Source of the DNA: a virus
IMG/VR virus record: IMGVR_UViG_3300037225_001477
Span: 45,502-109,501 of that record
DNA: 64,000 bases
Direction: 5' to 3' (one strand)
The notes beneath the pieces are model-generated. The model was given only the letters and a program-made list of their open reading frames with translations. It did no database searches and was not told where the DNA came from. Position numbers and translations under genes: made by a program. Shown in pieces: positions 4,808 to 43,912 of this stretch. Numbering within the stretch: position 1 is the stretch's first letter; each line of letters starts with the position of its first letter.

Positions 4808-4878
4808 TGGAGCTAGAGACTTTGACATCTCGACCTGTAGAATGCAGATCTACCGCTCTACAACTGAGCTATAGCCCC
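4808..4878 (-). tRNA. tRNA-Ala (UGC) with C33
   Basis: 71 nt. The acceptor GGGGCTA/TAGCTCC includes a G3-U70 pair, the alanine identity determinant. The D-arm is GCTC...GAGC. Anticodon stem GTAGA/TCTAC carries loop TCTGCAT (anticodon UGC), with C instead of U at position 33. The T-loop (GTCAAA) is also non-standard. Confidence 0.75.
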
Positions 4879-5283: not shown

Positions 5284-5383
5284 TGGGACTAATAGGAATC
5301 GAACCTACCACAACCGGCTTTTTCAATACTCTATTAAAAAGTATTCAAAAAGGCCGGTGCCTAAACCAATCGGCCTTAGTCCC
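5284..5383 (-). tRNA. tRNA-Lys (UUU) with 27-nt hairpin insertion in the anticodon loop
   Basis: 100 nt. The acceptor is GGGACTA/TAGTCCC plus A, anticodon stem CCGGC/GCCGG and T-arm GTAGG-TTCGATT-CCTAT. The anticodon 'loop' has 34 nt instead of 7. It begins CTTTT and ends AA, so removing the 27 nt between them restores the standard Lys loop CTTTTAA, with the insertion at the position used by eukaryal and archaeal tRNA introns (37/38). Within the insert the anticodon pairs as TTTTT/AAAAA, then a G-G mismatch, six base pairs and a 9-nt apical loop. Confidence 0.8.
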
Positions 5384-6821: not shown

Positions 6822-7463
6822 CTACTCCTTTAGTTCAATCATCCTCACTGTTGACATACTAAGCATACTACTAAAAATACTTTTAGTCAAGTATACATCA
6901 TAAGAAGATTGATGTAATTCTGCTTCATCAGTAATAACATCATAGTCAGGGGCTACTTCTTTCAGCTTCCTATACTTACCATTTTCTAGAGCAGCCTGAA
7001 CTACCATTATATCCAGAGAGTGAGGAAATATCATATAGTCCTCAAGAAATATATTATCAAATCCAGTATTATTAAATCCAAGGAATACAGAGGTATTACC
7101 ACAAAAGGTTTTAAAAGAAGCAATGTCATCTAAAAAATAATCAGTGTAATCATCAAAACTACCACAAATTTCAATCCGTCTTTTATTTATTTCATCATCA
7201 ATGAGTCCATTTACTTTTGTAGCTTTAGGGTTATATTCCTCTTTACAATAATAGAATCTATTATAAGTATCAATAACCGATATAGTCTTATTGGAGTTTA
7301 ATTTACATAATTCTGCTGATATTGATAATACTGAAGGCATTGGGTTAGCTACAAATCCATTGGTTTCCAAGTCATAGACAATAAATCTATTATTGTCCTT
7401 CATATACTGAATAAATTGGACAATATAATTATTAAGTACTTGTAGCTGTTCCTCTAATATCAT
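6822..7463 (-). CDS. DEDDh-type 3'-5' exonuclease (DnaQ-like)
   Basis: About 213 residues; ATG 7463 is six bases behind AAGGAG, and the GTG at 7469 is part of that site. Motif ExoI is DLET (residues 31-34), ExoII is GFNNTGFDN, and ExoIII is a His-to-Asp block (HQSSYDVYLT), which together give the four acidic residues and the general-base His of the DEDDh family. It is a stand-alone domain without polymerase. It could serve as proofreading subunit for the separately encoded polymerase fragment or in RNA/DNA turnover. Overlaps the phosphatase gene by 32 bp. Confidence 0.75.
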   Translation of the reverse strand: MILEEQLQVLNNYIVQFIQYMKDNNRFIVYDLETNGFVANPMPSVLSISAELCKLNSNKTISVIDTYNRFYYCKEEYNPKATKVNGLIDDEINKRRIEICGSFDDYTDYFLDDIASFKTFCGNTSVFLGFNNTGFDNIFLEDYMIFPHSLDIMVVQAALENGKYRKLKEVAPDYDVITDEAELHQSSYDVYLTKSIFSSMLSMSTVRMIELKE

Positions 7464-7953
7464 ATTCACTCCTTAATTTAATACAAAACTCTTCATAGTC
7501 ATATAAAAATTCAAATTGTTCATTTGTTTCTAATATTTTTCTTTTTTTAGATATCATTTCATACGCATTCTCTACTGACATCCCCGTTCTCACACAAATT
7601 CCTACTGTCATAATTCCTGTTCTACCATGCCCACCCCAGCAATGTACTAGCACATTATTATTTTTTATATAACCACATACTGTTTCTACAGCTTGATTAA
7701 ATTTACTTATATCAGCAGGAACCTCAAAGTCTGGTATGGGATAGGATAATACTTTGGTTCCATAGGAAGAATAAACTTTGAATAAAGAAACAGTATCTCC
7801 ATATAATCTTTTTAATTCTTCTTCCCCTAATAATACTATTGCTAATTTAATCTCATTTTCTTCCATTTCCATTCCTAGCATTTCTGCCATATCTAGATTA
7901 TTCGGAGCTGATGTCATAAATACTTTCACGTTATTTAATGTAAAATAGTCCAT
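7432..7953 (-). CDS. Protein-tyrosine-phosphatase-fold phosphatase
   Basis: About 173 residues from ATG 7953, which has GAGG six bases upstream; ATG 7965 overlaps the late motif. The P-loop signature HCWGGHGRTG (about 104-113) matches HCx5R(S/T), and an upstream Asp in IPDF (~75) could be the general acid. This superfamily includes tyrosine and dual-specificity phosphatases as well as RNA 5'-triphosphatases, so the substrate is open. The nearby tRNA/RNA cluster makes an RNA substrate conceivable but this is speculation. Confidence 0.7.
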   Translation of the reverse strand: MDYFTLNNVKVFMTSAPNNLDMAEMLGMEMEENEIKLAIVLLGEEELKRLYGDTVSLFKVYSSYGTKVLSYPIPDFEVPADISKFNQAVETVCGYIKNNNVLVHCWGGHGRTGIMTVGICVRTGMSVENAYEMISKKRKILETNEQFEFLYDYEEFCIKLRSEYDIRGTATST

Positions 7954-10363: not shown

Positions 10364-10477
10364 TGCCATCAGAGGGAGTCGAACCCTCAATCCATTAAAG
10401 GCGGGGGATTAACCAAGATTCTCTAGAGGAAAACCCTCGTTAAGTCCCCAGTGTATTTCCATTTCCACCACGATGGC
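10364..10477 (-). tRNA. tRNA-Leu (UAA) with 29-nt hairpin insertion in the anticodon loop
   Basis: 114 nt, class II. Acceptor GCCATCG/TGATGGC plus A, D-arm GTGG...CAC, anticodon stem GGGGA/TCCCC, T-arm GAGGG-TTCGACT-CCCTC. The loop has 36 nt, starting CTTAA and ending AA; removing 29 nt leaves the normal Leu(UAA) loop CTTAAAA. Inside, T33 to the first inserted base (TTAAC) pairs with GTTAA, then a G-G mismatch and about nine further base pairs, as in tRNA-Lys at 5284. Confidence 0.75.
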
Positions 10478-21134: not shown

Positions 21135-21497
21135 TTATTCCTCTAGTTTTTTTTGCGCTGCTGCTCTTATCTTCTTTTCCGATATCTGCCAAATTATATC
21201 TCCCTTACCATCATGAGCATCACCTACAAGTCTAATGAATAAATTAGATGGTGTCAAGAGGGGTGTGAACTTGGCTACTTTAGCTCCCGACACATAATCA
21301 TCACCTTCATAGTCTATATGTAGGGTACCAATAAAAGGAATATGAATATCTTCTCCTGCAAGTAAAGATTCAATCTGACGTAAAAATGCTGATTCCAATA
21401 CATTCCTAACTGTTAATAGTTTATAGGTTGATATGGCTGAAATCTCATTCATAAGTGAGGTTTCATATTCATTTATTTTTAGGTTATTATTGCTCAT
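21135..21497 (-). CDS. Possible HU/IHF-like DNA-binding protein
   Basis: 120 residues, ATG 21497, overlapping the upstream stop codon. An N-terminal helical pair (VRNVLESAFLRQIESLLAG) leads to a beta-strand IPFIGTLHIDY, an exposed arm and a return strand AKFTPLLTPSNLFIRLV. That is the order helix-helix-beta-arm-beta typical of HU/IHF proteins, including the P-S near the end. The arm lacks the usual Arg-rich tip, so the call is tentative. Confidence 0.4.
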   Translation of the reverse strand: MSNNNLKINEYETSLMNEISAISTYKLLTVRNVLESAFLRQIESLLAGEDIHIPFIGTLHIDYEGDDYVSGAKVAKFTPLLTPSNLFIRLVGDAHDGKGDIIWQISEKKIRAAAQKKLEE

Positions 21498-22864
21498 TAT
21501 TTTTCTCCTTGATATAATTGTCCCATTGCTTTCTTCATCTCCTTTATAGATGCTATTTTATAGAAACTAGTAGGAGGTCGGAACTGTACCATAGTACTAT
21601 GAGTAAGAAAATCTGTAATCTTAACAGCATGGAATAAAGGTAATTCTACCTTTGCCGCTACATCTTCTCGATTTAACATTTTACCCTTCTCGTCGAAGAG
21701 ATTATCAATAAAAGCATCAATCAACTTATCCCTATCAATAACCTTACGAATTAAAGGAGGTACTACTTCAGGGGGAGGCTCTATTACACCTACAGGAAAT
21801 CCCTCTGAAACTTCATGAAATTCTTTCTTAGGTTCAGGTGGATTCAATTTAATAAACTCGTTTACTTCTTCTTGCATACCCTCAAATTCAGGTTTTATAT
21901 ATACAGCCCCCTCCTTCTCCTTATCAAAAGCCTCTTTTATTTCCCCTGGCTTTAACTTCCTGTATTCTTTTTCTTGTATGCCCTGTTCAAGCTTAGTTGT
22001 AATAGATTTTTCTTCTTCATCTTCTTTATCCATAGTGTTAAAATGTGGAGAGGTAATGAACAGACCTACCTCAATCATAATGGCGAGCAAATAGAGTAAT
22101 ATAAACATAACAGTTCTATCAGACATACCTAAAGAGTCTCCCATCAACTGATACATTGTGCGACCTTTGGTGCTATTAATTTTTATGTCCCCTAATCTCA
22201 GGTTCTGTAAAGTCTCATTATTTGTTTGTTTCAAGTCTAATTGCTTTTGTATATCATCATTGTTCTTGTCTATTCTTTTTTGATAAGCATCATATTTCTT
22301 TTGAAAATCTGTATCATTTTGTGAGTCCAATAGTCCTTGATTTTTAGCATAGTCAATATTCAGTTTTTTATCTTGGAGTATTCTATCATCTATAGCCTTC
22401 AATTTCTCAGTGTAAATATTTTGGGAATCAGTAGTCACTACTGATATTTTGGCTTGGGTAGTTAAATATACTGATTGTGCTATGTAACCATACGAGGCAG
22501 ATATAGATAGGAAAGCAGCAAAAAGATAAATAATAAATCGAGTTTTACCTTGTCGTCTATGCCTTAAATAAGATTCAACAGTTTTAAGGAGTTTACCATC
22601 CTTTATTTTTTTTAAGTTTTGTGACTTGAACATACCCTTGATAAATTCATCAATATATCTAGCTTTTAATTGATCAGCTTGCCAGAATGATGTGTTATAC
22701 CAAGTTAAGCATAGTATCTTGACAGCTTCAATAACTCCTGCTACAATAAGCATTATGAGAAAAGATAATAAATCATGAGATAATCCAGTGTATAAAATTA
22801 TTCCTAATCCAGTAGAAACTATTGCTAACCCGAAGAATGCAATATATTGTAAAGTTTTGAGCAA
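21497..22864 (-). CDS. Large four-TM membrane protein with coiled-coil ectodomain
   Basis: 455 residues. The only start with a ribosome binding site (GAGG, six bases away) is TTG 22864. TM helices at about residues 5-27, 30-52, 105-125 and 250-270; between TM3 and TM4 lies a ~120-residue polar coiled coil (IDDRILQDKKLNIDYAKNQ...). The C-terminal ~180 residues are cytoplasmic with a Pro-rich linker and a helical domain. Resembles phage/ICE membrane proteins of unknown function that could tether DNA or virion components. Confidence 0.65.
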   Translation of the reverse strand: MLKTLQYIAFFGLAIVSTGLGIILYTGLSHDLLSFLIMLIVAGVIEAVKILCLTWYNTSFWQADQLKARYIDEFIKGMFKSQNLKKIKDGKLLKTVESYLRHRRQGKTRFIIYLFAAFLSISASYGYIAQSVYLTTQAKISVVTTDSQNIYTEKLKAIDDRILQDKKLNIDYAKNQGLLDSQNDTDFQKKYDAYQKRIDKNNDDIQKQLDLKQTNNETLQNLRLGDIKINSTKGRTMYQLMGDSLGMSDRTVMFILLYLLAIMIEVGLFITSPHFNTMDKEDEEEKSITTKLEQGIQEKEYRKLKPGEIKEAFDKEKEGAVYIKPEFEGMQEEVNEFIKLNPPEPKKEFHEVSEGFPVGVIEPPPEVVPPLIRKVIDRDKLIDAFIDNLFDEKGKMLNREDVAAKVELPLFHAVKITDFLTHSTMVQFRPPTSFYKIASIKEMKKAMGQLYQGEK

Positions 22865-22882: not shown

Positions 22883-22911
22883 AGTATACTCTCTAAATTT
22901 AAAAATGTCAA
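22883..22911 (-). promoter_or_regulatory. sigma70-type promoter TTGACA-17-TATACT
   Basis: -35 at 22911-22906, -10 at 22888-22883, 17-bp spacer; drives the membrane protein operon leftwards from the strand-switch region. Confidence 0.85.
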
Positions 22912-23030
22912 CAGGGGTACCCCTAATATTATTCTTATTATATTTATTGTATTATATTAGTAATGTTAGCCTGGATTTCGAAGAATCAATAGCGTAGTAT
23001 TTATAGAATTATATATAGTGAAAATTATAT

Positions 23031-23897
23031 GTGGGTATTGACTTTTATCACGAAGAAGGATATACTCTACATGTGAAGATAAAACGAGTAACAACAAATA
23101 GAACTATTACAGAAGAAGAATTCTTGCGGCTAAAGAAGATAAAGCCATTTTCTACCTTTAGACAAGATAGCAAAGGTATTAATTTTGGTATGATATTTGG
23201 TATGTCTTTCAAGAAGTTTAGCTCTTCTACCCTGGAAACATCATGGTCCTATGAGCGAGTACAGGAGTTTGTAAAAGAGAGACACCTAGAAGATATAGTC
23301 AAGGAGATGCAGGAAAAATATTCAAATATTGATAGTAAGCTTTGGTCATATTATGCTGTAGCCAAATTCATTAGAGATAATTTTTTTGATACATATAAAG
23401 GTTTAATGAAACGAATAAAGAGAAATGAGGAGTTGGGGAAGACAGTCGGCTATATTCGTTCTTTCCATGGAGGAATTCGTAGAGTACCTTTATTATCTTT
23501 GGCAACGAATCCAGATACAGGTAGGTATAGGCGAGATGAAAATTTGAAAGAAGCCTCAGGGCTTGTAAATATTTGTGCTAATAGCACTATACAAACTGAT
23601 GAATCAGCAGTAGTAGCAATAGCAGCATTAAAATGGAATTCTGGAGATAATGAGTGTAAAGCCTCTGTTGAAACTATTGGTTTTGTACATGATTCTCTGG
23701 ATGCATATGTGGATAAAGATAGAATACTAGAAGTAATACCTAAATTAAAAGAAGTATTTGAGATAGAGGAAAAGTGGCAGCAGGGGGTTAAATTTTTAAT
23801 TGATATACAAATAGTAGATTTAGAAAATAAGGATCATTACTATAAAAAAGGAGTAGACTTTGAAAAGTTTTTGGAGGAGTATTCTGATACTAAATAA
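23031..23897 (+). CDS. Family A DNA polymerase, C-terminal fragment only
   Basis: 288 residues from GTG 23031; no ribosome binding site. Motif B of family A polymerases is intact (R44, K48, then NFGMIFG at 51-57, the O-helix), as are QTDESA and motif C (FVHDS, H220-D221). Motif A, the thumb and any N-terminal exonuclease are missing: family members need ~550-900 residues. In the same frame just upstream, SLDFEESIA is followed by TAG and three more stops, at about the spacing expected for motif A. Either the gene is a remnant or the N-terminal part is encoded elsewhere and joined in trans. Confidence 0.75.
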   Translation: MGIDFYHEEGYTLHVKIKRVTTNRTITEEEFLRLKKIKPFSTFRQDSKGINFGMIFGMSFKKFSSSTLETSWSYERVQEFVKERHLEDIVKEMQEKYSNIDSKLWSYYAVAKFIRDNFFDTYKGLMKRIKRNEELGKTVGYIRSFHGGIRRVPLLSLATNPDTGRYRRDENLKEASGLVNICANSTIQTDESAVVAIAALKWNSGDNECKASVETIGFVHDSLDAYVDKDRILEVIPKLKEVFEIEEKWQQGVKFLIDIQIVDLENKDHYYKKGVDFEKFLEEYSDTK

Positions 23898-26193: not shown

Positions 26194-26985
26194 ATGAATG
26201 AACTTCCTCTGATACGATATGTACAATGCAATAAGTGTAAATCAAAGTCTGGTCCTATGGAACAACCAGGATTTTACTATGTAGATAATGGAGCATATGT
26301 AGCAGTGCAAGAATGTGATTGTCATAAGGAATGGATAAAACAAAGTAAATTACTTATTCAAGCTAATAAGAATAATATATGGATAGATGAGAACTCTCTT
26401 AAATATAATTTAGTGAGTTCTTATATAGGCACTAAAAGTTATAAAGAAATAATTAAAATTCTAAACTTTCTACAGGAGTATGATACAGACATTTTACTCC
26501 ATAATATATGTATGTATATATATGGCATTGACCAGACTCAAAAAACTACAGTAGCACAAGCAGTAGGGCTACACTTTTTTCGTAAGGGATATAGTGCTCT
26601 TTATACTCCAATGAAAGAGTTCTCTTCGATGGTATGTAAGCCCTTTCCTAGAGATGAAGAGGCAGAAAAGATTTCTGAATATATGAAAAGAGCCCAGGCT
26701 ACTCTTTTGATAATAGATGATGCCTTTGATAAGAATGCTTCTCCCGTTTATGATAGTGGCACTCAGTCCCCTTATATCGAGGCTTTCCTACGAGAGAGGA
26801 TTGACAATAAGGGAAAAGGCGTGCTATTCGTATCTAGGGTGAAACCAGAGGAGATTAAAAAAAATGGGTATTCAGATTCTTTACAATCCTTTGTAGTGAA
26901 CCATACGTCTAAAAAAAAGACAACATTAAAGTTTGAAGATGTTATAGATGATGTAGAGATACATAATATCTTTAAGGATAAATAA
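26194..26985 (+). CDS. DnaC/IstB-type helicase loader ATPase
   Basis: 263 residues, ATG 26194 behind AGAGG. N-terminal zinc site (C12, C15, C41, C43), then an AAA+ core with a degenerate Walker A (GIDQTQKTT, 111-119) and Walker B LLIIDDAF (171-178). Order and length match phage helicase loaders, and the replicative helicase follows immediately (ATG overlapping the stop). The unusual P-loop, with Gln in place of the second Gly, may lower ATPase activity. Confidence 0.75.
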   Translation: MNELPLIRYVQCNKCKSKSGPMEQPGFYYVDNGAYVAVQECDCHKEWIKQSKLLIQANKNNIWIDENSLKYNLVSSYIGTKSYKEIIKILNFLQEYDTDILLHNICMYIYGIDQTQKTTVAQAVGLHFFRKGYSALYTPMKEFSSMVCKPFPRDEEAEKISEYMKRAQATLLIIDDAFDKNASPVYDSGTQSPYIEAFLRERIDNKGKGVLFVSRVKPEEIKKNGYSDSLQSFVVNHTSKKKTTLKFEDVIDDVEIHNIFKDK

Positions 26986-28385
26986 TGGAAGAACGAACTA
27001 ACGAAAATTTTGTGCTAATGGCACAAATGCAAGTATTGAAAATATTAATTGAAAACCCCGATGTTAGTATAAAGGATATCACTTCTGATTCTTTCCATAA
27101 TCCTAAATTCAAAGCATATTATACTGCTTTACAAAATTTAAGAGAAACAGGAGAGGAAGTGAATGAAACCTCATTATTTAGAGAAGCCAATAGACTAGAA
27201 AATAATGTTGATATTGCTACTAATAAAAATCTTTTTTCTTTACAGGTAGATATATCCAACCTTGCCGGTGCTCTTGATTCCTTGAAGGATTCAATAGCAA
27301 AGCATAAGATAAATAAAACCATAGAAAAGATACAAGAACTTACAACTTCACATGATCCTTTAGATACATTGAAAGTATCTTCATTAGAGTACTCAATTCA
27401 AGAAACCTTAGCCACTGCTTATAAACAAGTTGTAAGTAAAGATTTTGAAATGCTCCTTGATAATTATACTGATGAACTACGGGAAAGAAAAAAAGGTTTA
27501 CACTTTCCTTTCTGTGAAAATTTCTTGGATCAAAATCTAACTAAAAAAGCAGCTCCTGGACAGATTATATTAATTGCTGGTGCTACTGGGACAGGTAAAT
27601 CAATATATGGATTATATGAAATGTCTAACCTAGTGGATTCTAATGTTCCATGTCTTTACTTTTCTCCTGAAATGGATGAAATTAGTACTATGGATAGGTG
27701 GATGGCAATGAGAAGTAATATACCCATTGATCAATGGTATTCAACTGGACCCACAATGGATTCATTGATTGAGATAGTACAGAAAGAAAAAGAAAAACTA
27801 AAGGATAAGGCATTTAAATTCATTGATGAACCAGATATTACATTAGATCAAATAAGGCATCATATACGAGAATTTAAACTTACTTATAAAGTACAATATC
27901 TTATTGTATTTGTAGATTTGATAACGCAAGTGAGAGAGTTTATGGATATGGCAGGAAATAAAAATTCATCTTTACCTACCATCATGGAGAAAGCAATAAA
28001 TAAAACGAATGCTATTGCCAAAAAGGAGAATGTATGTATTATTGCCATAACCCAGATGAATAGAGAAGCAGATTCGGCTAAAGTTTTAACTGTTCAAGAC
28101 CTGAAGAAATTACGTCCTACTAGAAATAATATTAAAAATTCTTCTGCTTTAGCTGAACGTTCTAGAACGGTATTAGCAGTTTTCAGAGCTAAATATTATG
28201 CTGATCAACTCCTGGCTGGTGATGCTGATGCTGCTATTCTTCCCGATGTTTTAGAAGTACAGATAATAAAGCAAAATATGGGCAGAGTTGGTGCTACAGG
28301 TAGGTATAATTTTAATGGTCCTACTTTTAGACTTAATGAATTAATAGGGGGAGGGGATATACTCGATGAAGCAAATAATGAATGA
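26985..28385 (+). CDS. Replicative DNA helicase, DnaB family
   Basis: 466 residues, ATG 26985. N-terminal helical domain (to ~150), RecA-like C-terminal domain with Walker A GATGTGKS (199-206), Walker B-type strand YLIVFVDLI, and ITQMNR, the DnaB motif H3 region; Arg-rich NRxxADSA follows. Fits the T4 gp41/DnaB length. Would unwind the fork as a hexamer together with the loader encoded upstream. Confidence 0.9.
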   Translation: MEERTNENFVLMAQMQVLKILIENPDVSIKDITSDSFHNPKFKAYYTALQNLRETGEEVNETSLFREANRLENNVDIATNKNLFSLQVDISNLAGALDSLKDSIAKHKINKTIEKIQELTTSHDPLDTLKVSSLEYSIQETLATAYKQVVSKDFEMLLDNYTDELRERKKGLHFPFCENFLDQNLTKKAAPGQIILIAGATGTGKSIYGLYEMSNLVDSNVPCLYFSPEMDEISTMDRWMAMRSNIPIDQWYSTGPTMDSLIEIVQKEKEKLKDKAFKFIDEPDITLDQIRHHIREFKLTYKVQYLIVFVDLITQVREFMDMAGNKNSSLPTIMEKAINKTNAIAKKENVCIIAITQMNREADSAKVLTVQDLKKLRPTRNNIKNSSALAERSRTVLAVFRAKYYADQLLAGDADAAILPDVLEVQIIKQNMGRVGATGRYNFNGPTFRLNELIGGGDILDEANNE

Positions 28386-39680: not shown

Positions 39681-40469
39681 TTATTCTAAAACCTTTAAAA
39701 AATAAGGGTCTTTATCCCATTCTTCTATGGCTATTTCAAAACTTTTGGATATAGCTGGGGAGGGGGGTAAGGGTATACATTTTATATGGCAATATTTACA
39801 CATTTTTTTCTTTTGGTTCAGTAGTTCTTCAGGAGTAGGAAAATGATCCAGCCCTTCTCCTAATTTGAATATTCTAGAGATGGCTATAGCCATAGAACAT
39901 ATATAAATCCCATAAGGGGAAATATTATATCCACAATTATCTTGTACCCAACAGTAATCAATATTTATATCATCTTTATAATCTATTAATCCCCGTAAGT
40001 TCGGGTGATGCCTGGATTCTACAACTTTTTGATTATAAAATTTTGATCTAACAATACAAAAATCTTTATTAGATTTTGCTACACTATAAGGATTAATCAT
40101 TGTTATAGATCGTGAATTGTCATAGGTGTTATATCTTTTTCTTATTTCTTCTAGTATGGAATTTACCCTTTCTCCTACTCCATTTGAAACAATATTCATA
40201 GGGAAAGATAGTTTAGGTCTTAGTATTTTTACTAATAAATCCAAAACTTCAAAAATTTGAGGGTGCAGTGTAGGCTCCCCTCCAAGAATGTTTATCCTTG
40301 ATACAGAAGAAATATGGGGTAAAACTGCAACAATATACTTTTCTAACTGGGATACAGACATAAAATCATTTTTATTAAATTTAGTACCGCATAATCTATT
40401 ACAATACTTACAAGATAAATTACACTCATAAGTAATATCAATATCAAAATTAACCATTACAATAGCCAA
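39681..40469 (-). CDS. Radical SAM enzyme (second copy) with auxiliary Cys motifs
   Basis: 262 residues, ATG 40469. Cluster motif CNLSCKYC (C16, C20, C23), GGEP at 63-66 (SAM binding), SNG ~95. The C-terminal part has six further Cys (C173, C179, C191, C224, C227, C231), the last three as CKYCHIKC, fit to ligate an auxiliary Fe-S cluster as in SPASM/twitch maturases. Such enzymes crosslink or epimerise residues of ribosomal peptides. Substrate candidate: the Cys-rich protein at 42155-42793. Confidence 0.8.
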   Translation of the reverse strand: MAIVMVNFDIDITYECNLSCKYCNRLCGTKFNKNDFMSVSQLEKYIVAVLPHISSVSRINILGGEPTLHPQIFEVLDLLVKILRPKLSFPMNIVSNGVGERVNSILEEIRKRYNTYDNSRSITMINPYSVAKSNKDFCIVRSKFYNQKVVESRHHPNLRGLIDYKDDINIDYCWVQDNCGYNISPYGIYICSMAIAISRIFKLGEGLDHFPTPEELLNQKKKMCKYCHIKCIPLPPSPAISKSFEIAIEEWDKDPYFLKVLE

Positions 40470-41359: not shown

Positions 41360-42155
41360 TTTTTGTTTCCTCTAACAAGTTAGTAAAATAAGAAATAAGC
41401 CCATTATTTTTCTCAGATTGAGCTATGGATATCAATTGACTTATTTCCATATCACGGTGTATATGGGATATATTATTATCATAGGTGATAGTATTTAGGT
41501 TGGGTAATTCTCCCTCTCCAGGCTTATCGTTCTCTCTTATATGATATCTAAACAAATATTCAGGGCAAATAGCAATAGCATTGTTCTCCATAAATTTTCG
41601 TAAAAAGTAGTGTTCGGGGCTAATGCTCTCTGGTGGGTACTCTTTACATACATCTAAAGCATAGTTATCATAAGTAAATTGTCCTGGATTTCTATAATTT
41701 TTATCATTATAAGGAACTATACTAAAAGTATCTAATTTTTGTCTCCACCTAAAGGTTTCAATAATAGAAGTATCTATAATCTTCTCTTTTATAGTCATCT
41801 GTAAGCAAGAAATTCCATGGGTATTTGCAGTAGTATATGCCCTTACTATCTTTTCTAATCTATCAGACACATATTCATCATCATCGTCAAGAATAGAAAA
41901 TAGATCACACTTATGGTCCTTGGCTACTTCTAATGCTTGGTTTAACATCATTCCTAAATTATTTTCTTTACTTTTTAATATAGTTCTTCTAGGATTATAG
42001 GGCATCGTGCATAAGGAGTAATCTTGATCATAATTATTACTACTTGATATTACAATATGGATATATTTAGTATATGCCTGTTTATCTATACTCCGTAAGC
42101 ATCGTGGTAATAATAATGGCCTATTATGAGTACGTGTTACTATAGCTATTTTCAT
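41349..42155 (-). CDS. Family 2 (GT-A) glycosyltransferase
   Basis: 268 residues, ATG 42155, overlapping the stop of the Cys-rich gene (TAATG). KIAIVTRTHNRPLLLPRCLRS at the start and LFSILDDDDEYV (DXD motif, 89-94) are standard GT2 features. GT2 enzymes include the S-glycosyltransferases that modify cysteines of glycocin peptides, so its coupling to a Cys-rich substrate candidate is suggestive. Acceptor not proven. Confidence 0.85.
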   Translation of the reverse strand: MKIAIVTRTHNRPLLLPRCLRSIDKQAYTKYIHIVISSSNNYDQDYSLCTMPYNPRRTILKSKENNLGMMLNQALEVAKDHKCDLFSILDDDDEYVSDRLEKIVRAYTTANTHGISCLQMTIKEKIIDTSIIETFRWRQKLDTFSIVPYNDKNYRNPGQFTYDNYALDVCKEYPPESISPEHYFLRKFMENNAIAICPEYLFRYHIRENDKPGEGELPNLNTITYDNNISHIHRDMEISQLISIAQSEKNNGLISYFTNLLEETKNDI

Positions 42156-42793
42156 TAGTTATACTCACATACACATTGATTATTACAACTGCAAGTATTT
42201 TGAGCACTACACACATAGTCACAAGTACAAGTAACATGGGTACACCCATTATAGTTACAACAATTAGTCCCATGGCACACGCACTGATCCCCATGCCCGA
42301 TATCATAAGTATAACATGTACAGGAATACCCATTTGCGCATTTTACATTGCACGCACAAGCATGTGCTGTACATGAGTATGAACTACACGTAGAATAATT
42401 AGAGGTTACTACATTACATGCACATTGATTATATAAACTATTAATATCATTTACAATAGCATTCATTGTAGAAGCTTGCAGAGTTACACCAGAATTAAAA
42501 TTACCACTAGCAGCAGTTAAACTAAGATTTGTACCTATATTAGAATGAACTAAAGTTCCATACCCATTAGGATTGATTAATCCAGGCCATGTGTGAGTAG
42601 AATTTAATGTATTCTCTTGTGTAATTATTCCTTGGGGTAGGCTTCCATATATTTTAGTATACTGAGAAGGCGCTCCCACCGCAGAACCTGCGCTTCTCGA
42701 AGTGATTAATGAGTTTATAGCAACAATAATAGCACTAATATCTGAATCAGTAACTATATTAGTCTGTGTTACTGGATTTGCAATAGTTGGCAT
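42155..42793 (-). CDS. Cys-rich virion-like protein, candidate modified peptide substrate
   Basis: 212 residues, ATG 42793. Residues 1-123 contain no Cys, are Thr/Ser/Asn-rich and look like a small tail-fibre or tail-knob domain. Residues 124-209 contain 21 Cys, with seven CxC motifs (CAC, CTC, CVC, CSC) interleaved with Ser, Thr, Asn and Tyr. Reducing cytoplasm and so many paired Cys suggest metal binding or enzymatic thioether/S-glycoside formation. It is translationally coupled to a GT2 gene and preceded by a SPASM-type radical SAM gene and the tail fibre gene. Not a known toxin or metallothionein pattern. Confidence 0.7.
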   Translation of the reverse strand: MPTIANPVTQTNIVTDSDISAIIVAINSLITSRSAGSAVGAPSQYTKIYGSLPQGIITQENTLNSTHTWPGLINPNGYGTLVHSNIGTNLSLTAASGNFNSGVTLQASTMNAIVNDINSLYNQCACNVVTSNYSTCSSYSCTAHACACNVKCANGYSCTCYTYDIGHGDQCVCHGTNCCNYNGCTHVTCTCDYVCSAQNTCSCNNQCVCEYN

Positions 42794-42805
42794 TACTTTC
42801 TCCTA

Positions 42806-43912
42806 TTAAATATGGGCATACTCAAATAAAGCATCTACAAACCTACCATACTCTGCTATAAGTACATTATATTTACAGGATTGGTAATAGGGGGTTCCTG
42901 ATGTCTGCACATTAGTAGAAGGACACCAATTTTGCTGATAGTATTTATTATTACTATTATTATAATCGAGTATATTCTGCGTACTGGAATACATCTTCTT
43001 ATTTTTCCCCATATTAAGAAAGGCATTAAAGAACTTAGGCCCTCTTTCAAAAAAATTATAGTTGCTTTTATCTGCTATCATTGCTAGTCTATGACAAGGA
43101 AACAATTCTCCCTCTAGATTATATGCATACATAAAATGTCCAGCGGTACAAACCGCTCCTTTTCTTTTATACCAATTATTAGCTAAAGTAATCTTTTGTT
43201 GCTGATTTAGTTCTGGCAATAAAAAAATTTTATTAAATATTTCCTCTTGTTCTCGTAAAAATATGTCTATATCATCATCAGTATAATTCTCCTCAAATAT
43301 TATTTGGAATGTATTCTCCCCTAGCATTCCAATACTTTTATCTAAATCACCCTTTGCTTCTAATTTACAGATTTCCCACCAAAAATCAAATAACTTTGAA
43401 AGATTAGAAAAATTATTTCTTCCTATAGCACCATGGCAACTCCAAGGAATATCATTAGCAATACAGCACTTTATGTTTCTTATCACTGTACTGTATGTAC
43501 CTTTTCCTTTATGGTCCACCCTACATAAATCATTTATTTCCTCAGGTCCATCTATACTTATCTGTAACTTTAGGTTTAGTCTTTTGATGATATTTATATT
43601 CTTTATTATTAGGGTTCCATTTGTTATTAGTTGAGCATCTTTAGTAAAGGAATTTAGTAAATCAACTTTTATATCTTCATTTATATCAAGTTTCTGAATA
43701 GACGTATAGAGGTAGTCAAACTCGTCTAAAGCAAGTAAGGGCTCACCACCAAATACCATTAATCCTGTAGAGGGTAAATTTAACAGAAACTCGTCAATCA
43801 TTCCTTTACTTATAGTTTTTTGTGGCTTGTCTTTTTCAAAGCAATAAGAGCAATTCATATTGCATTTTGAGGTTATTAGTAACTCTGTAATAGGAACGGG
43901 TATAAAATCCAT
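42806..43912 (-). CDS. Radical SAM/SPASM maturase
   Basis: 368 residues, ATG 43912 behind AAGGAG. CNMNCSYC (C17, C21, C24), GGEP (55-58), ITNGT (~96-100), QISIDGPEEINDLCR (~117-131), then SPASM-type ligands C255 (GAVCTAGH), C273 (LFPCHRL), C330 and C346. Overall layout is that of anaerobic sulfatase-maturase-like and sactipeptide/ranthipeptide maturases, which form Cys-derived crosslinks in peptides. It lies 13 bp upstream of the Cys-rich gene. No recognisable RiPP-recognition domain at the N-terminus. Confidence 0.85.
   Translation of the reverse strand: MDFIPVPITELLITSKCNMNCSYCFEKDKPQKTISKGMIDEFLLNLPSTGLMVFGGEPLLALDEFDYLYTSIQKLDINEDIKVDLLNSFTKDAQLITNGTLIIKNINIIKRLNLKLQISIDGPEEINDLCRVDHKGKGTYSTVIRNIKCCIANDIPWSCHGAIGRNNFSNLSKLFDFWWEICKLEAKGDLDKSIGMLGENTFQIIFEENYTDDDIDIFLREQEEIFNKIFLLPELNQQQKITLANNWYKRKGAVCTAGHFMYAYNLEGELFPCHRLAMIADKSNYNFFERGPKFFNAFLNMGKNKKMYSSTQNILDYNNSNNKYYQQNWCPSTNVQTSGTPYYQSCKYNVLIAEYGRFVDALFEYAHI

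What the first reader, a model, noticed from the sequence alone, without database searches (positions are those of the whole stretch)
22912..23897. Family A DNA polymerase present only as a C-terminal fragment
The 288-residue frame carries intact motifs B and C but lacks motif A, thumb and exonuclease, has a GTG start without ribosome binding site, and sits at a strand switch. In the same frame, 57 bp upstream, SLDFEESIA (motif A-like spacing) is cut off by several stops. Intact downstream motifs argue against an old pseudogene. The phage might use a split polymerase, with parts joined by trans-splicing at RNA or protein level, or simple assembly of two chains.
Basis: partly seen in the sequence, partly recalled or inferred. 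Interest (0 to 1): 0.7.

Follow-up and report, generated by a model that had tools for sequence, protein, structure and literature searches.

The report
Phage DNA polymerase made in halves
This virus of bacteria carries only the back half of its DNA-copying enzyme in this stretch; relatives show that the enzyme is encoded as two separate proteins that must come together to work, probably because a self-splicing protein insert once broke the gene and then died.

Summary
Real, and not a decayed gene. The frame at 23031-23897 is the fingers/palm end of a family A DNA polymerase (motifs B and C; no motif A, thumb or exonuclease). The same stand-alone C-half, cut at the same surface loop between motif A and motif B, occurs in several other phage lineages and is under purifying selection. 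Related contigs supply the missing partner: separate ~660-710-residue genes with exonuclease, thumb and motif A. Both halves lie in one contig in G001 (and an independent near-copy), L115, G011 and G019: 38 kb apart, adjacent with an ORF between, adjacent in reversed order, or 4 kb apart. Reversed order excludes read-through and cis-splicing. No intron was found, and no conserved intein junction. The N-halves end in a ~45-residue tail; in the best cases it resembles the end of an N-intein that lost its catalytic block A and the block-B histidine. Best explanation: a two-chain polymerase that assembles without splicing, descended from a gene fractured by a split intein. Precedent exists in family B (Aeromonas phage 43A/43B), not, as far as I found, in family A. 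This phage's own N-half was not found in the ~147 kb known. The SLDFEESIA 'motif A' is non-coding coincidence.

The parts
23031..23897 (+). open frame of the stand-alone C-terminal half of a family A DNA polymerase (288 codons, GTG)
   Evidence: AF2 model of residues from 23073, pLDDT 79.9, Foldseek best hit Pol I 8oo6
23073..23897 (+). most likely coding sequence (GTG start, MKIKRVTTNRTITEEEF...), aligned with the starts of the other stand-alone C-halves
23160..23204 (+). motif B (RQDSKGINFGMIFGM)
   Evidence: alignment A1 invariant columns
23682..23696 (+). motif C (FVHDS)
   Evidence: alignment A1 invariant H220 D221
23038..23066 (+). promoter-like TTGACT-17-TATACT, conserved as TTGACT-17-TATAGT in L015
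22883..22911 (-). promoter-like TTGACA-17-TATACT for the divergent leftward gene, conserved in L015
22968..22994 (+). SLDFEESIA stretch: non-coding, not conserved; not a motif A remnant
21497..22864 (-). divergent membrane-protein gene (455 aa), same neighbour in L015
23928..25754 (+). SNF2-like helicase gene immediately downstream; same neighbour in L014 and L015
26194..26985 (+). ATPase, probable DnaC-like helicase loader (name by inspection), same operon
26985..28385 (+). DnaB-like replicative helicase, same operon

Best explanation
The window holds the gene for the C-terminal chain (fingers and C-terminal palm, motifs B and C) of a two-chain family A DNA polymerase. The other chain (3'-5' exonuclease, thumb, N-terminal palm with motif A) is a separate gene, seen in relatives and probably in the unsequenced part of this phage. 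Neither chain alone has both catalytic aspartates (motif A on one, motif C on the other), so activity needs the two chains to associate; they do so without splicing. The break most likely began as a split-intein ('fractured gene') insertion in the loop after the motif A helix; the intein then lost splicing. Shown by sequence: the C-half is conserved and stand-alone, N-half genes exist, the break site is the same, the orders and distances vary, no intron was detected, and an intein-like tail is present. Inferred: that the chains associate, that the complex is the replicative polymerase, that this phage has an N-half, and that the tail helps association.
For: C-half as a free-standing gene: L015 69%, L014/G001 42%, L115, L096, G011 32%, and a C-half in G019. 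Selection: pN 0.23 vs pS 0.80 between window and L015. N-halves: G001 710 aa, 34-37% to an intact relative; L115 658 aa; L148 at least 619 aa; G011 707 aa; L266, L267, L268 697-709 aa. Both halves in one contig: G001 and independent assembly G006, ~38 kb apart; L115 adjacent; G011 adjacent with the C-half first; G019 ~4 kb apart. Intact single-chain relatives in the same clade: L016, L116, L118 (tree). Folds: C-half to Pol I, N-half to Pol I/apPol at 7e-12. Intein origin of the tail: G001 tail's best PDB hit is an intein chain (9hth_A, E 0.022; identified as an intein from its sequence and the Aeromonas phage matches) and 10 of its 11 phage hits are N-inteins of split polymerases, E 0.5-1; L115 tail's best phage hit by score among annotated genes, CP21_249, is an N-intein. 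Against a profile of active N-inteins not chosen by hit: G001 3/3000, L115 5/3000, L148 0/3000 shuffles; L266-L268 tails match the G001 tail, 59 bits, 0/3000. Block-B His is lost in the four aligned tails.
Against: This phage's own N-half was not found in ~147 kb (G000 plus the overlapping G003). Records are incomplete metagenome contigs. No tool here tests association or activity. Motif C reads HDS rather than HDE, and the Arg of the ERxAxN motif appears changed (my reading of the alignment), so reduced or altered chemistry cannot be excluded. Intein similarity of single tails is weak (E about 0.02-2), and not significant for G011, L266, L267 and L268 taken alone.
Confidence: 0.8

Rival explanations
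1. Active protein trans-splicing: the halves carry split-intein parts and are ligated into one polymerase.
For: Active-looking split inteins occur in this clade, in L017 and L148 at motif B and in the G001 ribonucleotide reductase. N-half tails resemble N-intein ends.
Against: At this site the tails lack block A with the Cys/Ser nucleophile (TIGR01445 is not hit) and the block-B His; the C-halves start with ~10 residues and no Asn-Cys/Ser/Thr junction.
Confidence: 0.06
2. RNA trans-splicing by a split group I or II intron joins two transcripts.
For: Halves far apart on the same strand in G001.
Against: No Rfam intron at the boundaries in the window, L014, L112, L115, L015, L099 or L017; N-halves carry conserved extra coding tails before their stops, and C-halves have their own starts.
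Confidence: 0.03
3. In this phage the C-half is a remnant: the N-half was lost and another polymerase (host or phage) replicates the genome.
For: No N-half in ~147 kb; the C-half evolves faster than most of its neighbours (68.5% vs 77-86% identity for four of five).
Against: Purifying selection and an intact frame since divergence from L015; first gene of the replication operon behind a conserved promoter-like site; whole-clade conservation; the ends of the record are still open.
Confidence: 0.08
4. The C-half alone has another job, such as a DNA-binding or clamp-like subunit.
For: Lacks motif A, so cannot polymerise by itself.
Against: Motif C and motif B residues are kept; partner N-halves with motif A exist in several of the relatives' genomes.
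Confidence: 0.03
5. Assembly artefact or chimera at the strand switch.
For: Metagenome contig.
Against: Same junction and neighbours in L015 from another sample; GC and GC3 alike on both sides; G001 and G006 repeat the split arrangement independently.
Confidence: 0.01

Closest known systems
Split family B polymerase gp43A/gp43B of T4-like Aeromonas phages (25, 44RR)
   Same: One polymerase broken into two genes whose products assemble without splicing; the phage 25 chains co-purify and are active according to the review PMC2988022.
   Different: Family B, not A; there the break is tied to a homing endonuclease or an untranslated spacer, with no intein-like tail reported in the passage read.
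Split PolB with split intein (Aeromonas phages Aes508/Aes516 and others; Pseudomonas jumbo phage MIJ3, PMC6892783)
   Same: Phage polymerase fractured by a split intein; N-intein ends resemble the N-half tails found here.
   Different: Those inteins keep their conserved splicing blocks and are predicted to splice; here blocks A, F and G are gone and block B has lost its histidine.
Split minimal DNA polymerase III alpha of group 2.2 jumbo phages (PMC7824862)
   Same: Two stand-alone proteins encoded by distant genes, proposed to reconstitute one enzyme.
   Different: Family C, unrelated fold, no intein link.
Split ribonucleotide reductase NrdA of Aeromonas phage Aeh1 (PMC2988022)
   Same: Gene-in-pieces enzyme that stays active as two chains after a mobile element broke the gene.
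   Different: Different enzyme; mobE endonuclease insertion, not a dead intein.
Intact family A polymerases of Vibrio phages SIO-2 and 1.215 and of contigs L016, L116, L118
   Same: Same family; alignable with both halves.
   Different: Single chain.

Membership tests
DNA polymerase family A (PF00476) | Motif B (R...K..NFG..[YF]G) | tested here: met
DNA polymerase family A (PF00476) | Motif C aspartate (HD) | tested here: met
   VHDS in the window frame; Glu after Asp replaced by Ser
DNA polymerase family A (PF00476) | Motif A aspartate on the same chain | tested here: not met
   absent from the window frame; present on separate N-half genes of relatives, e.g. VTMDYSGLQLR in G001
DNA polymerase family A (PF00476) | Polymerase fold | tested here: met
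   AF2 pLDDT 79.9; Foldseek Pol I E 1e-4
Split (two-gene) phage polymerase | Complementary halves in the same genome | tested here: inconclusive
   met in G001, G006, L115, G011, G019; not found for the window phage, whose genome is incomplete
Split (two-gene) phage polymerase | Chains associate and are active together | not testable with these tools
   needs co-expression
Active split intein / fractured gene | N-intein block A with Cys/Ser-1 | tested here: not met
   TIGR01445 hits L017 and G001 RNR but not the split pol N-halves G001 and L115
Active split intein / fractured gene | Block B T..H | tested here: not met
   His lost in all four aligned tails
Active split intein / fractured gene | C-intein ending Asn before Cys/Ser/Thr | tested here: not met
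   C-half starts
Active split intein / fractured gene | Sequence kinship of the tail with N-inteins | tested here: met
   for G001, L115, L148; weak or not significant alone for the others
Trans-spliced group I/II intron | Intron core at the exon boundaries | tested here: not met

The most novel reading that the evidence does not exclude
A dead split intein has been kept as a docking domain: the surviving end of the N-intein on one chain and a short basic strand at the start of the other (MKIK, MRVK, MLKIK) hold an obligate two-chain family A replicative polymerase together in a whole clade of large phages, so a parasitic splicing element became an assembly interface.
Probability: 0.45. Interest if true: 0.82.

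Novelty: new variant of a known kind. Interest (0 to 1): 0.7.

Why it matters
It would be a family A DNA polymerase, the Pol I/T7 type, that works as two separately encoded chains, with the two catalytic aspartates on different polypeptides and the genes up to 38 kb apart. It offers a series of states for the question of what follows when a split intein breaks an essential gene: intact genes, actively fractured genes, and genes whose intein has died but whose break remains. It also gives a natural split site and possible docking pieces for a Pol I-type enzyme.

Tried and rejected
A motif A remnant upstream (SLDFEESIA): non-coding and not conserved. The N-terminus of the window ORF as a C-intein: the first 14 residues overlap a conserved promoter-like site and are not shared with relatives. 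N-half in the same record: none by own HMMs, phrog_17, PF00476 or the N-half profile. The overlapping same-phage contig G003 added 37 kb and no N-half. The free-standing exonuclease-like gene at 6822-7469 is not convincingly the N-half (nothing of thumb or motif A; E > 1). Pfam and NCBIfam intein models do not detect the N-half tails. The intein profile was partly circular, because two members were chosen by hit; (actB) avoid this. A shuffle test used wrongly cut tails and is void; one search repeats it. Direct BLASTP of the G001 against the L115 tail gave nothing. Single-protein scans of IMG/VR found nothing; alignment queries did. Literature: no family A case found in 8 full-text searches of an open-access library; the primary fractured-genes paper is not held.

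Full report
Observation. The frame at 23031-23897 (+) is real and is the C-terminal half of a family A DNA polymerase: Pfam DNA_pol_A positions 205-375 of 381 at E 1.3e-10, PHROG 17 (full-length polymerase) only at its C-terminal part, motifs B and C aligned with Vibrio phage SIO-2 and other intact phage polymerases. Random sequence of the same dinucleotide make-up gives no stop-free stretch above 171 codons in twenty 64 kb samples. The window is the last 64 kb of a 109.5 kb linear virus record. No other family A match and no N-half is in that record.

The upstream 'motif A' is a coincidence. In the relative L015 (69% identical from residue 23073 onward) the intergenic DNA is homologous but carries indels of 1 and 10 bases and no such peptide. 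What is conserved there is two promoter-like sites: one leftward (22883-22911) and one rightward (23038-23066, TTGACT-17-TATACT; TTGACT-17-TATAGT in L015). The rightward one overlaps the first codons of the listed frame, so GTG 23073 is the more likely start. The stand-alone C-halves of relatives begin close to the same point: MNIERVTVNRTIT (L015), MKITHRKVMRPIT (L014), MRVKKINITEKKYG (L115), LKIKKREVTLND (G011).

The C-half is conserved as a free-standing gene. An alignment scan of IMG/VR and later scans found stand-alone C-halves in L015 (66-69%), L014/G001 (41-42%), L115, L096/G005 and G011, plus a C-half in G019. Between window and L015 pN is 0.23 and pS 0.80 (saturated), so protein change is strongly suppressed. 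Intact single-chain relatives exist in the same clade (L016, L116, L118). A tree puts window, L015 and L014 together (100/98), while L115 groups with intact L116 and L118 (96/98), so the break or its loss happened more than once.

The partner exists. In G001 (170.6 kb) a separate gene of 710 codons carries exonuclease, thumb and motif A (VTMDYSGLQLR) and ends after DVHSTTGWNVF plus a tail. Its C-half lies about 38 kb away on the same strand, upstream in reading direction. An independent contig from another sample, G006, repeats both halves at the same distance. In L115 the halves are adjacent with an ORF between them that looks like part of a homing endonuclease (by inspection). In G011 they are 12 bp apart with the C-half first. 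In G019 (284.7 kb) they are about 4 kb apart, N-half first. L266 and L267 add two further N-halves. L148 has three pieces: an N-half, a middle piece starting MKIKNIEVKKLTIDDF six bases later that ends in an active-looking N-intein at motif B, then an endonuclease-like ORF and the C-intein with the rest. Reversed order and distance exclude read-through, frameshifting and cis-splicing.

How they join. Rfam finds no intron at any boundary tested. Genuine split inteins in the same clade are detected easily: L017 polymerase at motif B (TIGR01445, 2.2e-5) and G001 ribonucleotide reductase (1.2e-8, with C-part TIGR01443, 2.9e-8). The N-halves G001 and L115 are not hit by these models. Yet their tails are intein-like. 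The G001 tail's best PDB sequence hit is the chain 9hth_A, named as a DNA polymerase but matching the Aeromonas phage polymerase N-intein (E 0.022). Ten of its eleven phage hits are N-inteins of Aeromonas split PolB, at E 0.5-1 (Aes516 annotated as such). The L115 tail's top annotated phage hit, CP21_249, is an N-intein by TIGR01445. Against a profile of three active N-inteins not chosen by hit, shuffles reach the score in 3, 5 and 0 of 3000 for G001, L115 and L148; the G011 tail is not significant. Tails of L266, L267 and L268 are not significant against inteins alone, but their profile matches the G001 tail at 59 bits, 0/3000. Active N-inteins keep T..H of block B; the histidine is gone in the four tails aligned, block A is missing, and no C-intein is left on the C-halves. 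Splicing at this site is therefore unlikely, and the simplest reading is a two-chain enzyme. AlphaFold gives a confident C-half (pLDDT 79.9), matched by Foldseek to Pol I, and a weaker N-half (66), also matched to Pol I-type enzymes, whose tail is predicted as four strands and a short helix.

What is not shown. This phage's own N-half: with the overlapping contig G003 about 147 kb are known and it is not there. Association, activity and the role of the tail are inference. Motif C reads HDS, and the Arg upstream of the conserved NxxxQ appears changed.

Known context. Two-chain phage polymerases without splicing are known in family B (Aeromonas phage 25 gp43A/gp43B co-purify and are active, PMC2988022) and proposed for a minimal Pol III alpha (PMC7824862); split PolB with a split intein is known (PMC6892783). 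I found no family A case in the open-access library, which misses most subscription papers. I therefore class it as a new variant of a known kind.

Noticed in passing
window 42155-43912 and 39681-40469 (-): A protein with a strikingly cysteine-rich C-terminus (CNVKCANGYSCTCYTYD...) lies next to two genes that look like radical SAM enzymes; possibly a modified virion peptide.
   Followed up: no
window 4808-4878, 5284-5383, 10364-10477 (-): Rfam calls tRNAs that ARAGORN does not; two are 100 and 114 bases long, so may have long variable arms or insertions.
   Followed up: no
L003:14098-15882 (-), about 34.1-35.9 kb of the phage record: A metallophosphoesterase carries what looks like a cis intein (CLDRETELLTKRGW ... 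TYFTGNCWSLP).
   Followed up: partly
L113:8347-11073: Ribonucleotide reductase of the G001-type phage is broken by a genuine split intein (TIGR01445 and TIGR01443).
   Followed up: yes
L017:4348-8717 and L148:1-4332: Polymerase genes fractured at motif B by an active-looking split intein with an endonuclease-like ORF between; L148 has three polymerase pieces.
   Followed up: yes
L146:1397-5505: Campylobacter phage CP21 gp43 (family B) is annotated as many fragments, one of which is an unannotated N-intein (CP21_249).
   Followed up: partly
window 6822-7469 (-): A free-standing protein that looks like a DnaQ-type 3'-5' exonuclease (215 aa), in addition to the exonuclease expected on the N-half.
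   Followed up: no
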